Assembly (NCBI GenBank): GCA_028824295.1
Contig: JAPPED010000003.1
Span: 372,001-436,000, forward strand
Source of the DNA: Rhodospirillales bacterium
Lineage (GTDB): Bacteria; Pseudomonadota; Alphaproteobacteria; TMED109
Direction: 5' to 3'
DNA: 64,000 nucleotides
Position numbers and translations under genes: made by a program. A model generated the notes under the pieces. That model ran no database searches, was not told the origin of the DNA, and worked only from the letters and a program-made list of their open reading frames with translations. This document shows, one piece after another, positions 3,071-6,393 of this stretch (position 1 is its first letter; each line of letters begins with the position of its first letter).

Positions 3071-3224
3071 CCCCCGGAATGCCGGCTGTTTCGGACGACG
3101 ATGAAGATTGGCGGGTGGTGCCGTTTCCGTCGTCTCCTGCGCGCTGGCCCGCGAGAAGCGCGGTGCCGAGGAGCCTCCCCTGCGCCAAGATGGGGTGAGC
3201 ATTGCAACCCAATGGGATTCCAGC

Positions 3225-3956
3225 ATGTCTCCTGAGATCGTGAAAGACCTTGCCCCGAGCGGTACGTTGCGCGCCGCCATCAACATGGCCAACTTTCTTC
3301 TGGTTACCGGCCGCACGACAAGCGGAGATCCGGACGGCGTTTCGCCCGACATGGCGCGCGAACTTGCCCGCCGCCTTGGCGTCGGCGTCGAACTGCTGCC
3401 ATACGCGTCTCCGGGCGAGATCGCCGACGATGCCGGAACCGGCACTTGGGACATCGGCAATATCGGCGCGGAACCGCAACGTGCCGAAAAGATCGACTTC
3501 ACGGCGGCCTACTGTGAAATCCAGGCGACATACCTGGTGCCGGCCGGATCACCGTTCGAAAGCATCGCAGATGTAGACCGTCCGGGAACGCGCATCTCAG
3601 TCTCTGCCCGCAGTGCCTATGACCTGTGGCTGGAACGAAATATCAAGCACGCGGAACTGGTGCGCAGCAATGGAATCGATGCGTCGTTTGAGTTGTTCGT
3701 GAGTGAAGGGTTCGATGCACTTGCCGGGTTGCGGCCCCGGTTGGCGGCGGATGTCGAGAACCTGCCCGGCGCCCGCATTCTCGAAGGTCAGTTTACCGCG
3801 GTGCAGCAGGCCATCGGCTGCACCCGCGGGCGCGATGCCGGTGCTGCCTTCCTCAAAGAGTTCGTGGAAGAGACGAAGGCCTCTGGATTTGTCGCCGAGC
3901 TCATCGAACAGCACGGGGTGGCGGGCCGCCTGTCCGTTGCACCGCCGGCCCGCTAG
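3225..3956 (+). CDS. solute-binding-protein family 3-like protein without signal peptide
   Basis: A 243-residue protein with the bilobal fold of amino-acid-binding periplasmic proteins: the first lobe starts at GTLRAAIN and continues through GVSPDMARELARRLGV, with the acidic segment GTWDIGNIGAEPQRAEKIDF and a crossover near TYLVPAGSPF. It most resembles the PBPb/SBP_bac_3 group. The start at 3225 gives a protein beginning MSPEIVKDLAPS with no signal peptide. The upstream extension to 3108 contains a short cysteine-containing stretch (VSVVSCALAREK) that is not a convincing signal either. No permease or ATPase lies nearby. It may therefore be a cytoplasmic ligand sensor or an enzyme of the cyclohexadienyl-dehydratase type rather than a transporter subunit; that is inference. 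Confidence 0.75.
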   Translation: MSPEIVKDLAPSGTLRAAINMANFLLVTGRTTSGDPDGVSPDMARELARRLGVGVELLPYASPGEIADDAGTGTWDIGNIGAEPQRAEKIDFTAAYCEIQATYLVPAGSPFESIADVDRPGTRISVSARSAYDLWLERNIKHAELVRSNGIDASFELFVSEGFDALAGLRPRLAADVENLPGARILEGQFTAVQQAIGCTRGRDAGAAFLKEFVEETKASGFVAELIEQHGVAGRLSVAPPAR

Positions 3957-4225
3957 CGAACTCCCCGGCGCAGGGGGGCGGGGCACCTTCGCGCTCGGGG
4001 TCAACCGGCTGGAGATTGATTTGGAGAATGATTGCCGACCTGTCGCAGAAGGAATCGTGAATGACCCGCCCGCCGCAACTGGAGCCGATAGAGGCCGTCG
4101 GTTCTGCCCATCGCGCCGAGCAGTGACCGATTACACGTTGAGCCTCTGACACCGGGCCGTAAGCCCATTCTGCGTCGGGGGTTGACTGTTTGATCCCATT
4201 TTGCTTCAACTACGGCATCAGGACG

Positions 4226-4336
4226 CGCTCATCCAGAGCGGCGGAGGGACAGGCCCTTTGAAGCCGCGGCAACCGCTTTGAGCGGTGCCAATGCCTGATC
4301 GATGAGTTAGCCGGAGGCGGAACTCCGCTCTCGGCG
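4226..4336 (+). promoter_or_regulatory. candidate SAM-clan riboswitch (SAM-I core, no P4)
   Basis: The sequence folds as the S-adenosylmethionine-binding core. P1 pairs CTCATC (4228-4233) with GATGAG (4301-4306). P2 pairs GCGGC (4238-4242) with GCCGC (4263-4267), enclosing GGAGGGAC-AGGCCC-TTTGAAG, the SAM-I kink-turn consensus. GGCAACC (4268-4274) follows, P3 pairs ACCGCT with AGCGGT (4272-4277 and 4281-4286), then GTGCCAATGCC (4285-4295) matches the conserved J3/4 strand. The P4 hairpin of standard SAM-I is absent. A hairpin directly 3' of P1 (4310-4335) recalls P5 of the SAM-IV and SAM-I/IV types. It precedes the osmC/monooxygenase operon by about 240 bases, so those genes are probably repressed when SAM is plentiful. 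Structure was folded by eye, not scored with a covariance model. Confidence 0.78.
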
Positions 4337-4379
4337 CTCTTTGAGAGAGCGCGTAGGAAGCGAGAGAGGAGGCCGCCAG

Positions 4380-4550
4380 ATGCTGCCCCAATGTGCACTG
4401 TTCGAAGCCGAATGGCGCGGCGAGTCCGCATTCGGACACTTGGTCGACGGCACCTCTTTCACTTCGCTGCCTGAGAGCAGGGAAGGGTCTCCGGGCTTCA
4501 GGGACGGTCGTTTCATGACCGTCCTGGCACCGAACCCTCCCACTCCCTAG
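4380..4550 (+). CDS. possible 56-residue leader ORF between riboswitch and osmC
   Basis: An ORF beginning MLPQCALFEAEW and ending TAG at 4548-4550. Its ATG is preceded by a strong ribosome-binding site, AGAGGAGG (4364-4371), 8 bases away. No family is recognised and the composition (many Pro, Gly, Ser) is not clearly protein-like. A perfect hairpin (4502-4524) lies inside its 3' part. It could be a translated leader peptide coupling the riboswitch to the downstream genes, or simply untranslated leader RNA whose purine-rich tract mimics a ribosome-binding site. Upstream CTCTCG (4328-4333) can pair with CGAGAG (4361-4366) at the edge of that site, which would give a translational switch; this is inference. 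Confidence 0.3.
   Translation: MLPQCALFEAEWRGESAFGHLVDGTSFTSLPESREGSPGFRDGRFMTVLAPNPPTP
4502..4524 (+). terminator. perfect 8-bp hairpin in the osmC leader, possible attenuator
   Basis: GGACGGTC (4502-4509) and GACCGTCC (4517-4524) form a perfect 8-bp stem with a 7-base loop. There is no T-tract behind it, so it is not a textbook intrinsic terminator. Its place between the riboswitch and the osmC start suggests part of an expression platform. Confidence 0.4.
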
Positions 4551-4576
4551 TGCGATTTCCCAGTGAGGAGGATCCG

Positions 4577-5140
4577 ATGACCTCAACTTCTGAAAAACCC
4601 GCCGTAAATGGCGTTAACGTCGAAGCTTTGCTCGGTGCACGGAATGCGTTGGGCGAGACTCCGGAGGCCGCCAAGTTTACCTGGCGGGCTACCAACGAGT
4701 GGCTGCACGGCACCCATAGCCGATCCTCGGTAGCTGGCTACTTCGGCTTGGGTGAGGAGCACGAGCACAAGGCCACGTTCGGCTTCGAGTCCGATCATCC
4801 GCTCGTGTTCGCGGCCGAGGACAACGCGGCGACACCGGTCGAGATTGTCCTGGTGGGCTTGGCGAGCTGCCTGACCGCGGGCGTCGCCGCCGTTGCCCAG
4901 AACCGGGACATCCAGCTTCGTTCGGTGAAGGCAACGGTCGAGGGTGACATGGATATCCAGGGCATTCTGGGTGCCGACCCCGACATCCGGAACGGGTTCA
5001 GCGACATCCGGGTCACGTACGACATCGATGCCGACGCCAGCCCGAACGACATCGAAGCGCTCGTCGCGCAATCGCAGAAGCGTTCCGCGGTGTTCGACAT
5101 CCTGACCAACCCGACGAATGTAACCGTCCAGGTCAGCTGA
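4577..5140 (+). CDS. OsmC-like family protein lacking the resolving cysteine
   Basis: A 187-residue OsmC/Ohr-superfamily protein. In the family, two cysteines reduce organic hydroperoxides. Here the first, Cys98 in VGLASCLTAGV, is present, but the second position reads QKRSAVFDIL with Ser in place of Cys, as in a subgroup of OsmC-like proteins not known to be classical two-Cys peroxidases. The N-terminal extension of about 45 residues is longer than usual. GAGGAGG (4565-4571) sits 5 bases before the ATG, fixing the start. The gene is 8 bases upstream of the flavin monooxygenase, so they form an operon, downstream of the SAM-clan riboswitch. A role in sulfur-compound handling or thiol redox chemistry is inferred from that control. 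Confidence 0.85.
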   Translation: MTSTSEKPAVNGVNVEALLGARNALGETPEAAKFTWRATNEWLHGTHSRSSVAGYFGLGEEHEHKATFGFESDHPLVFAAEDNAATPVEIVLVGLASCLTAGVAAVAQNRDIQLRSVKATVEGDMDIQGILGADPDIRNGFSDIRVTYDIDADASPNDIEALVAQSQKRSAVFDILTNPTNVTVQVS

Positions 5141-5148
5141 TCGTCACC

Positions 5149-6393
5149 ATGCGCGCGACCACGGTCGTGGTCGGGGCCGGCCACGCCGGCCTCGCCGTCA
5201 GTCATTATCTCGCGGCGTGCTCGATCGACCACGTGTTGATCGAGCGCGGCGAGGTCGCCAATTCGTGGCGAACGGAGCGTTGGGATTCCCTGACGCTGCT
5301 TACGCCGAACTGGCAGGCACGGGTCCCGGGACTTGCGTACGACGGCGACGATCCCGACGGCTTCATGGACGTCAGCGAAGTGGTGTCATTCATCGAGCGG
5401 TATGCCGGGCTCGTCGGACCTTCGCTCGAGACCCACACGAATGTCGAATCGGTTCGTCAGAATGGCGCCGGTTATCAGGTGGTGACCGATCGCGGGGTCT
5501 GGCACGCCCCCACCGTGGTGCTCGCCACGGGCAGCTGCAACATCCCGAAGGTTCCCGCACTTGCGGCGGATCTCCCTGGCTCGATCGCCTCCTGCACGCC
5601 GATGGACTACTCGAACCCTTCCGCGCTGCCAGACGGGGGCGTTCTGGTCGTGGGGGCGTCGGCCAGCGGCGTTCAGATTGCGGAGGAAGTCCACGCCTCC
5701 GGCCGCCCGGTGACGCTGGCGGTCGGCGAGCACGTCCGCATGCCCCGAACGTATCGCGGCAAGGACATCCTGTGGTGGATGGACCGGACCGGGCTCCACG
5801 ACGAGCGGTACGACGAAGTCGACGACATCAAGCGGGCGCGGCGAGTGCCGGCACCCCAGTTGGTGGGGAAACCGGAAAGGACCACCCTGGACCTGAATGC
5901 GCTGACCGAACAGGGAGTCCGCCTGGTCGGCCGGTTTGCCGGGATCGCCGACGGGAAGGCCCAGTTCTCGGGCTCGCTTCGCAACAAGTGCGCCCTTGCC
6001 GACCTCAAGCTGGGCCGGCTGCTCGACACGATCGACGAGTGGGTCGACGACGAAGGCCTCGAAGATGAAGTGGAGCCGGCGCGCCGTTTCCCGCCGACAA
6101 GGGTCGAGGATTCACCGCCGCTGGCCCTCGACCTCGCCGGGCACGGCATCCGGACGGTCATCTGGGCGACCGGGTTCGAGGCTGACCACTCCTGGCTCCA
6201 CCTGCCCGTGCTCGATCACAAGGGGAGGCTCCACCATGACGGCGGGGTGGTGAGCAAGTTACCCGGTCTCTATCGGATCGGCCTCAACTTCCTCCGGCGC
6301 CGCAAGTCGAGTTTCATTCACGGAGCAGGGGACGACGCCCGCGATCTGGTCGGCCACCTAGCGGCCGGGATCGGGGCCCCAGCGCCCGGCTAG
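5149..6393 (+). CDS. FAD-dependent monooxygenase, CzcO/YUCCA-type
   Basis: A 414-residue flavoprotein. The first Rossmann motif binding FAD is VVVGAGHAGLAVSHYL (6-21). The second, binding NADPH, is VLVVGASASGVQIAEEV (about 165-181), and the distal WATGFEADHSWL is the ATG-containing motif of flavin-containing monooxygenases. The group oxygenates nucleophilic N or S atoms, or acts as Baeyer-Villiger-like enzymes, using NADPH and O2 in the cytoplasm. Only 8 bases separate it from osmC, so translation is probably coupled. With a SAM-clan riboswitch upstream, S-oxygenation or desulfonation of an organosulfur compound for sulfur supply is a reasonable inference. The exact substrate is not visible. 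Confidence 0.87.
   Translation: MRATTVVVGAGHAGLAVSHYLAACSIDHVLIERGEVANSWRTERWDSLTLLTPNWQARVPGLAYDGDDPDGFMDVSEVVSFIERYAGLVGPSLETHTNVESVRQNGAGYQVVTDRGVWHAPTVVLATGSCNIPKVPALAADLPGSIASCTPMDYSNPSALPDGGVLVVGASASGVQIAEEVHASGRPVTLAVGEHVRMPRTYRGKDILWWMDRTGLHDERYDEVDDIKRARRVPAPQLVGKPERTTLDLNALTEQGVRLVGRFAGIADGKAQFSGSLRNKCALADLKLGRLLDTIDEWVDDEGLEDEVEPARRFPPTRVEDSPPLALDLAGHGIRTVIWATGFEADHSWLHLPVLDHKGRLHHDGGVVSKLPGLYRIGLNFLRRRKSSFIHGAGDDARDLVGHLAAGIGAPAPG

What the first reader, a model, noticed from the sequence alone, without database searches (positions are those of the whole stretch)
4226..4576. SAM-clan riboswitch without P4 in front of an osmC-like/flavin monooxygenase operon
The core strings of the SAM-I aptamer and matching stems P1, P2, P3 are all present, but P4 is missing and a hairpin sits 3' of P1, which recalls SAM-IV or SAM-I/IV variants. 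Downstream genes are not methionine biosynthesis genes but an OsmC-like protein lacking its resolving Cys and a flavin monooxygenase. That suggests a SAM-repressed organosulfur-salvage pair that, to my knowledge, is not a standard SAM regulon member. Stems were seen in sequence; the family is established knowledge; the pathway role is inference.
Basis: partly seen in the sequence, partly recalled or inferred. Interest (0 to 1): 0.72.

Follow-up and report, generated by a model that had tools for sequence, protein, structure and literature searches.

The report
P4-less SAM riboswitch before osmC-FMO operon
An RNA sensor for the methyl donor SAM, missing one of its usual arms, appears to switch off translation of an uncharacterised two-gene sulfur operon, and the same stripped-down sensor controls methionine genes in a distant group of bacteria, where it also gates a cysteine-rich leader peptide.

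Summary
Window 4226-4308 scores 73.9 bits with Rfam SAM-I (RF00162; cut-off 44.4). P1, P2a/P2b with the kink-turn loop, P3 and the P2-loop pseudoknot are intact. P4 is replaced by three bases.

It is not SAM-I/IV (that needs an uninterrupted P2) and not SAM-IV (no conserved PK-2). The 3' hairpin is an expression platform. It buries the Shine-Dalgarno of a leader ORF at 4380. A conserved helix, 4223-4230 with 4347-4354, is mutually exclusive with P1. Across 37 relatives the off structure covaries strongly (21 pairs changed on both sides, 0/500 shuffles).

The osmC-flavin-monooxygenase pair is conserved in several phyla. Only one clade carries the riboswitch: mainly Alphaproteobacteria and Acidimicrobiia. 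In Acidimicrobiia the same P4-less element also precedes metX, metH, metZ and a second osmC, which places osmC-FMO in a SAM regulon. "Ca. Pelagibacter" osmC, downstream of SAM-V, is a published precedent.

In Acidimicrobiia copies the gated leader ORF encodes a cysteine-rich peptide, suggesting two-input SAM and Cys-tRNA control. The window's leader lacks that signature but appears to relay control to osmC through an anti-SD. SAM binding, switching and enzyme chemistry are untested.

The parts
4182..4210 (+). putative sigma-70-type promoter: TTGACT (4182-4187), 17-nt spacer, TTCAAC (4205-4210)
   Evidence: sequence; TTGAC at a similar distance from the element in most of the 21 aligned loci
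4221..4382 (+). whole conserved riboswitch element (aptamer plus expression platform), ends in the leader ORF AUG
   Evidence: covariance model R1, 207.8 bits
4226..4308 (+). SAM-I-type aptamer, RF00162 match
   Evidence: 73.9 bits, GA 44.4
4228..4306 (+). P1: CUCAUC 4228-4233 with GAUGAG 4301-4306
4238..4267 (+). P2a 4238-4242/4263-4267, P2b 4246-4248/4254-4256, kink-turn-type internal loop between them
4250..4297 (+). P2-loop pseudoknot CAGG 4250-4253 with CCUG 4294-4297; becomes CGGG/CCCG in L120
4268..4289 (+). P3 with GGCAACC / GGUGCC SAM-contact core and a 3-nt loop
4290..4300 (+). P3-to-P1 joining strand AAUGCCUGAUC; P4 absent
   Evidence: same length in 45/45 unique elements
4316..4377 (+). 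sequestor hairpin: GGCGG 4316-4320/CCGCC 4373-4377, CUCC 4323-4326/GGAG 4368-4371, CUCUCG 4328-4333/CGAGAG 4361-4366, inner hairpin 4334-4340/4346-4352
   Evidence: folds; covariation
4223..4354 (+). antisequestor (ON) helix ACGCGCUC 4223-4230 with GAGCGCGU 4347-4354, exclusive with P1 and the inner hairpin
   Evidence: (42/45 elements 7 bp or more; compensated AAGCGCUC/GAGCGUUU variants), RNAalifold
4380..4550 (+). leader ORF, 56 codons, SD GAGAGGAGG inside the sequestor; no coding constraint detected
4447..4491 (+). 45-nt run without a change in four related species; contains the anti-SD (4454-4460) that pairs with the osmC SD
   Evidence: random expectation 0.00095; osmC SD pairing probability 1.0
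4565..4570 (+). osmC Shine-Dalgarno GAGGAG
4577..5140 (+). osmC-like gene (187 aa, Cys98, Ser170 in place of the resolving Cys)
5149..6393 (+). flavin monooxygenase-like gene (414 aa)

Best explanation
It is a SAM-sensing riboswitch of the SAM clan, closest to SAM-I but lacking P4, that acts as a translational OFF switch. With SAM bound, P1 (4228-4233/4301-4306) is held. The downstream RNA then folds into a hairpin (4316-4377) that hides the Shine-Dalgarno of a leader ORF starting at 4380. With little SAM, the 5' strand of P1 and its upstream neighbours (4223-4230) pair instead with 4347-4354. This breaks P1 and the core of the sequestor and frees the Shine-Dalgarno. Ribosomes on the leader ORF then open a second hairpin that hides the osmC Shine-Dalgarno, so osmC and the flavin monooxygenase are made when SAM is low. 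The pair most likely serves sulfur or methionine supply. Shown here by computation: the aptamer, the missing P4, the covarying sequestor, the conserved antisequestor complementarity and the association with methionine genes elsewhere. Inferred: SAM binding, the actual switching, the relay through the leader ORF, and any chemistry of the two enzymes.
For: RF00162 73.9 bits versus cut-off 44.4. Sequestor covariation in 37 elements: 21 pairs changed on both sides, 71 cells, 0/500 shuffles; slid partners give 6 pairs at most (smaller sets). SD paired with P1 formed in 19/19 folds, fully free with the ON helix forced in 12/19. ON complementarity of 7 bp or more in 42/45, with compensated variants. 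The same P4-less element stands in front of metX, metH, metZ, osmC2-metZ and osmC-FMO in Acidimicrobiia; in L120, L141 and L145 the buried SD belongs to metH itself. Leader relay: 45-nt invariant run holding the anti-SD of osmC; stop/start overlap of leader ORF and osmC in L014, L015, L017, L021. Precedent for osmC under SAM control: PMC5069961.
Against: No biochemistry. Without ligand the OFF fold is already calculated to be more stable (-80.4 versus -72.7 kcal/mol), so the switch would have to work during transcription or with help. In 7 of 19 ON folds the SD is still partly or wholly paired. P1 never varies, so its pairing gets no covariation support. With the leader ORF held open the osmC SD stays mostly paired (0.71-0.92), so the relay is not established. 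The leader ORF length varies between lineages (21 to 56 codons).
Confidence: 0.76

Rival explanations
1. An ordinary SAM-I riboswitch that lost P4 by drift and controls transcription by termination, as in most Firmicutes; the 3' hairpins are terminator and antiterminator.
For: SAM-I covariance model fits best; strong GC-rich hairpins 3' of P1.
Against: No U-run follows the conserved hairpins. The conserved stem contains the SD, and in some relatives the SD belongs to metH directly. P4 is absent in 45/45 unique elements, not just here.
Confidence: 0.08
2. The element is a member of SAM-IV or SAM-I/IV.
For: Both are SAM-clan folds without the internal SAM-I P4 and with a hairpin outside P1.
Against: Neither RF01725 nor RF00634 is reported at this site, while RF01725 finds the metF-metH leader of the same genome. 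P2 has the internal loop SAM-I/IV lacks. P3 loops vary from 3 nt to tens of nt, so no conserved PK-2 strand. The 3' hairpin holds an SD.
Confidence: 0.04
3. The aptamer has changed ligand (for example SAH or another sulfonium) along with the loss of P4.
For: Regulated genes here are not textbook methionine genes; P4 is missing.
Against: All conserved core strings are kept, and the same P4-less element precedes metX, metH and metZ in Acidimicrobiia.
Confidence: 0.07
4. The riboswitch regulates only the leader ORF, whose product or translation has its own role; osmC-FMO is driven independently by its own SD.
For: The sequestered SD is that of the leader ORF, 197 nt before osmC; osmC has its own strong SD.
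Against: The leader sequence shows no coding constraint, and the element is tied to osmC-FMO or methionine genes in nearly every copy identified. In four loci the leader ORF overlaps the osmC start.
Confidence: 0.1

Closest known systems
SAM-I riboswitch (S box, Rfam RF00162)
   Same: P1, P2a/P2b with kink-turn-type loop, P3, P2-loop pseudoknot, SAM-contact strings; scores above the Rfam cut-off
   Different: no P4 in any of 45 unique relatives; fixed-length joining strand to P1; conserved SD-sequestor platform directly 3'
SAM-IV riboswitch (RF00634)
   Same: no P4, pseudoknot strand joined directly to P1, hairpin 3' of P1
   Different: no conserved PK-2 strand (tiny or variable P3 loop); kink-turn loop as in SAM-I; not reported at this site by the model
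SAM-I/IV riboswitch (RF01725)
   Same: SAM-clan core; the same genome uses one before metF-metH
   Different: SAM-I/IV lacks the P2 internal loop, which is present here; the model does not report this site
SAM-V-controlled bhmT-osmC of Candidatus Pelagibacter ubique (PMC5069961)
   Same: an osmC gene under SAM-riboswitch control, strongly induced by sulfur limitation, translational OFF switch
   Different: unrelated aptamer class; neighbour is ordL (a deaminating-oxidoreductase family protein), not this flavin monooxygenase; osmC lies behind bhmT
Cysteine leader peptides of actinobacterial cys operons (PMC1262725)
   Same: short ORF with runs of Cys codons before sulfur genes, as in the Acidimicrobiia copies of this element
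   Different: no riboswitch gating the leader ORF is described there; in the window the Cys signature is missing

Membership tests
SAM-I (RF00162) | covariance-model score above gathering cut-off, best in clan | tested here: met
   73.9 versus 44.4 bits
SAM-I (RF00162) | P1, P2a/P2b with kink-turn internal loop, P3, P2-loop pseudoknot | tested here: met
   pseudoknot covaries CAGG/CCUG to CGGG/CCCG in L120
SAM-I (RF00162) | P4 helix between P3 and P1 | tested here: not met
   deleted here and in 45/45 unique elements; proteobacterial SAM-I leaders inspected as a contrast keep insert-length sequence at that place
SAM-I (RF00162) | binds SAM and discriminates against SAH | not testable with these tools
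   needs in-line probing
SAM-IV (RF00634) | PK-2 between P3 loop and strand 3' of P5 | tested here: not met
   3-nt P3 loop in the window, loop length and sequence variable in relatives
SAM-IV (RF00634) | model score above cut-off | tested here: inconclusive
   no match in own genome, but only 150 of 861 candidates were scored; in cmscan RF00162 outscores every other clan family at the site
SAM-I/IV (RF01725) | P2 without internal loop | tested here: not met
   internal loop present; definition from PMC2864571
SAM-I/IV (RF01725) | model score above cut-off | tested here: not met
   all 94 candidates scored, only C2:44871 matched
Cys leader-peptide attenuator | Cys codons enriched in the leader ORF | tested here: not met
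   alphaproteobacterial leaders incl. the window: 20 Cys versus 18.1 expected; Acidimicrobiia leaders: 30 versus 12.5, 0/2000 shuffles
OsmC/Ohr peroxiredoxin | two redox Cys | tested here: not met
   Cys98 invariant, second site is Ser170
MSMEG_0569 flavin oxidoreductase (TIGR04046) | score above curated cut-off | tested here: not met
   353 versus 498 bits: homologous, outside the family as curated

The most novel reading that the evidence does not exclude
In Acidimicrobiia this P4-less SAM riboswitch controls the translation of a cysteine-codon leader peptide that in turn controls osmC-FMO, osmC-metZ and metZ. That would be a serial two-input RNA circuit in which the operon is fully on only when SAM is low and charged Cys-tRNA is also low. 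The window carries a horizontally acquired descendant in which the cysteine sensor decayed into a plain translational relay.
Probability: 0.45. Interest if true: 0.78.

Novelty: new variant of a known kind. Interest (0 to 1): 0.62.

Why it matters
A natural SAM-I-like aptamer that has consistently dispensed with P4 bears on what P4 is for, and links SAM-I and SAM-IV architectures. The conserved, covarying platform is a ready-made translational switch to test. Finding osmC proteins repeatedly in SAM regulons (Pelagibacter, Acidimicrobiia, here), once directly beside metZ, makes a sulfur-supply role for this poorly understood peroxiredoxin-like family testable. The Acidimicrobiia version, in which a SAM riboswitch hides the start site of a Cys-codon leader peptide, would be an unusual two-signal RNA circuit.

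Tried and rejected
Looked for other riboswitches in front of osmC-FMO pairs that lack this element: none above Rfam cut-offs in the loci scanned. Looked for a conserved third gene that would reveal the pathway: the pair has no widely conserved neighbour. Tested the leader ORF for coding constraint: none. Tested for a Cys signature in alphaproteobacterial leaders: none. Searched Rfam for the leader hairpins: no family. A SAM-V survey of the class added no osmC locus that was followed up. Papers naming SAM riboswitch, OsmC and monooxygenase together: none in the held library. Fold search of the flavin enzyme gives bacterial flavin monooxygenases (Cellvibrio, P. stutzeri, S. maltophilia) but no specific substrate.

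Full report
OBSERVATION. The sequence at 4226-4308 (+) matches Rfam RF00162 (SAM-I) from model position 1 to 108 with 73.9 bits against a gathering score of 44.4. It is the only Rfam match in the 64-kb window and the only RF00162 match in the 3.0-Mb genome. The alignment leaves out exactly the model's P4. The helices were placed base by base: P1 4228-4233/4301-4306, P2a 4238-4242/4263-4267, P2b 4246-4248/4254-4256, pseudoknot CAGG 4250-4253 with CCUG 4294-4297, P3 4268-4277/4281-4289.

WHICH SAM FAMILY. The SAM-I/IV model finds another place in the same genome, a leader in front of metF-metH (57.1 bits), but not this one. SAM-I/IV RNAs lack the internal loop in P2 (PMC2864571), which is present here. 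SAM-IV lacks P4 too, but is defined by P5 and a second pseudoknot PK-2 involving the P3 region (PMC6890682). Here the P3 loop is three bases and in relatives varies freely in length and sequence. The RF00634 genome search scored only 150 of 861 candidates and is inconclusive on its own, but in cmscan RF00162 outscores every clan member at this site. The aptamer is best called a SAM-I-like variant without P4. P4 is one of the features by which SAM-I and SAM-IV are told apart, so I do not file it as a plain SAM-I member.

IT IS A FAMILY. osmC relatives in 65 loci from Alpha- and Gammaproteobacteria, Acidimicrobiia and other Actinomycetota and Gemmatimonadota were fetched; in nearly all, the flavin monooxygenase gene follows. 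About 20 carry the SAM element, and their conserved sequence continues well beyond P1, to an AUG. A covariance model of this longer element (R1, 162 positions) finds every such copy at E 2e-22 or better. In Alphaproteobacteria SAM-I is rare (6 of 277 genera). The other alpha- and gammaproteobacterial SAM-I leaders inspected (before metX or a threonine-synthase-like gene) have insert-length sequence at P4. In the class of the Acidimicrobiia genome behind L026, 166 of 296 genomes match R1; the lower-scoring ones were not inspected and may include ordinary SAM-I. The best 30 loci were read. Among 45 unique elements with the shared 5' motif, the strand from GGUGCC to GAUGAG is always 23 nt: no P4 in any.

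EXPRESSION PLATFORM. Downstream of P1 every sequence folds into a hairpin whose 3' strand contains the Shine-Dalgarno of the AUG at the element's end. On 37 distinct copies the stored structure (aptamer plus sequestor) forms standard pairs in 93.3% of cells. 21 pairs have changes on both sides and 71 cells are doubly changed, reached by 0 of 500 shuffles; sliding the partners by 1-3 columns gives 6 pairs at most. The sequestor helices 5-8 contribute 12 of their 15 pairs and the inner hairpin 5 of 7. That alignment was fitted to the model, which favours it; the slid controls and the compensatory types are the safeguard. The smaller sets agree. The alternative helix ACGCGCUC (4223-4230) with GAGCGCGU (4347-4354) would break both P1 and the inner hairpin. 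It reaches 7 bp or more in 42 of 45 elements (53% when the upstream letters are shuffled), and a group with AAGCGCUC upstream has GAGCGUUU or GAGCGCUU downstream. RNAalifold chose this helix as the consensus fold. Calculated energies favour the OFF fold by about 8 kcal/mol in the window even without SAM, so co-transcriptional folding probably matters.

LEADER ORF AND RELAY. In the window the hidden SD belongs to a 56-codon ORF (4380-4550) that ends 26 nt before osmC. It shows no coding constraint. Four related species share a 45-nt stretch in it without a change (4447-4491; 0.00095 by random placement), and this stretch contains the sequence that pairs with the osmC SD with probability 1.0 in all four. 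In L014, L015, L017 and L021 the leader ORF overlaps the osmC start codon. I infer that ribosomes on the leader ORF open the osmC start site. The support is comparative only, and with the leader held open the osmC SD is still calculated to be largely paired.

REGULON. The Acidimicrobiia genome behind L026 has four copies: in front of osmC-FMO, a second osmC followed by metZ, metH, and metX (identities). In other genomes of that class the element precedes osmC-FMO, osmC2 with or without metZ, metZ-like genes, metH and a threonine-synthase-like gene. In L120, L141 and L145 the sequestered SD is that of metH itself. This is the strongest evidence that the P4-less element senses SAM and that osmC-FMO belongs to a methionine/sulfur regulon. 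The osmC tree puts all riboswitch-bearing copies in one 34-row clade that mixes Acidimicrobiia with Alphaproteobacteria and Immundisolibacterales, with 4 changes of state (shuffled mean 20.9), so operon and switch have probably moved between phyla. A published parallel is osmC of "Ca. Pelagibacter ubique", downstream of a SAM-V riboswitch and induced about 50-fold in sulfur limitation (PMC5069961). In the window's genome a PF01507 search finds CysD (next to CysN) and a protein that looks like DndC, but no CysH-like PAPS reductase (97.9% complete assembly). Reliance on reduced sulfur is plausible but was not tested further.

CYSTEINE LEADER IN ACIDIMICROBIIA. Where the element stands before osmC, osmC2 or metZ in Acidimicrobiia, the gated ORF is a short peptide with Cys codons at a fixed place before a conserved SRV motif, e.g. 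MDCLPFKPPASSRCMCCPGSRVIHPGGPGNRP and ...RMCCAGSRVVDSA. Across 13 leaders there are 30 Cys in 431 residues against 12.5 expected, 0 of 2000 shuffles. In most, the SRV codons form one arm of a long hairpin. Cys-codon leader peptides are known before actinobacterial cys operons (PMC1262725). I found no report of one controlled by a SAM riboswitch, though the library is incomplete. Alphaproteobacterial leaders, including the window's, show no such excess (20 against 18.1), so this second input is a feature of the relatives, not of the window.

THE TWO PROTEINS. OsmC keeps its first Cys (Cys98, 65/65) and has a serine (Ser170) at the resolving position. Its nearest solved relative is PDB 2opl. The flavin protein is related to TIGR04046 below its cut-off. 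Its model (pLDDT 79.8) is closest to bacterial flavin monooxygenases from Cellvibrio, P. stutzeri and S. maltophilia, with sequence hits to the same entries. Enzymes of that fold can oxidise sulfides (general knowledge), which would fit sulfur salvage, but the substrate is unknown.

VERDICT. Real, more than chance, and better understood than at first sight: a P4-less SAM-I-like translational riboswitch with a covarying platform. It is a new variant of a known kind; its most surprising aspect, stacking on a Cys leader peptide, lies in the relatives.

Noticed in passing
L003:4872-4973 (own genome, contig C2): A second SAM-clan riboswitch, SAM-I/IV (RF01725, 57.1 bits), stands before metF-metH in the same genome.
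   Followed up: yes
L118, L122, L130, L132, L133, L136, L138, L142 (Acidimicrobiia): The leader ORF gated by the SAM element encodes a Cys-rich peptide with a conserved CxxSRV tail and a long hairpin over the SRV codons; candidate two-input SAM plus Cys-tRNA control.
   Followed up: partly
L117 (Acidimicrobiia): A second OsmC family member directly before metZ under the same P4-less element, pointing to an OsmC role in homocysteine synthesis.
   Followed up: partly
L149, L150: Variant P4-less elements with a long P3 insert before a 411-aa threonine-synthase-like gene; L148 precedes a 342-aa protein not identified.
   Followed up: no
own genome C33:57905-58588 and C8:19343-19888: PF01507 search finds CysD (beside CysN) and a protein that looks like DndC, but no CysH; the organism may not reduce sulfate.
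   Followed up: partly
L140, L141, L143, L145: metH-linked copies with a rearranged platform in which the antisequestor complementarity is kept by compensating changes.
   Followed up: partly
L018:8809-9039 (-): Match to RF02648 (Cis90 sRNA, 74.2 bits, cut-off 50) outside Ruegeria.
   Followed up: no
L008, L016, L018, L023, L060: 21-codon leader ORFs end in a Cys-Thr-stop followed by a small conserved hairpin; possibly a remnant of the Cys leader.
   Followed up: no
window 3108-3956: Solute-binding protein of amino-acid ABC type (SBP_bac_3) just upstream on the same strand, not conserved with the operon.
   Followed up: no
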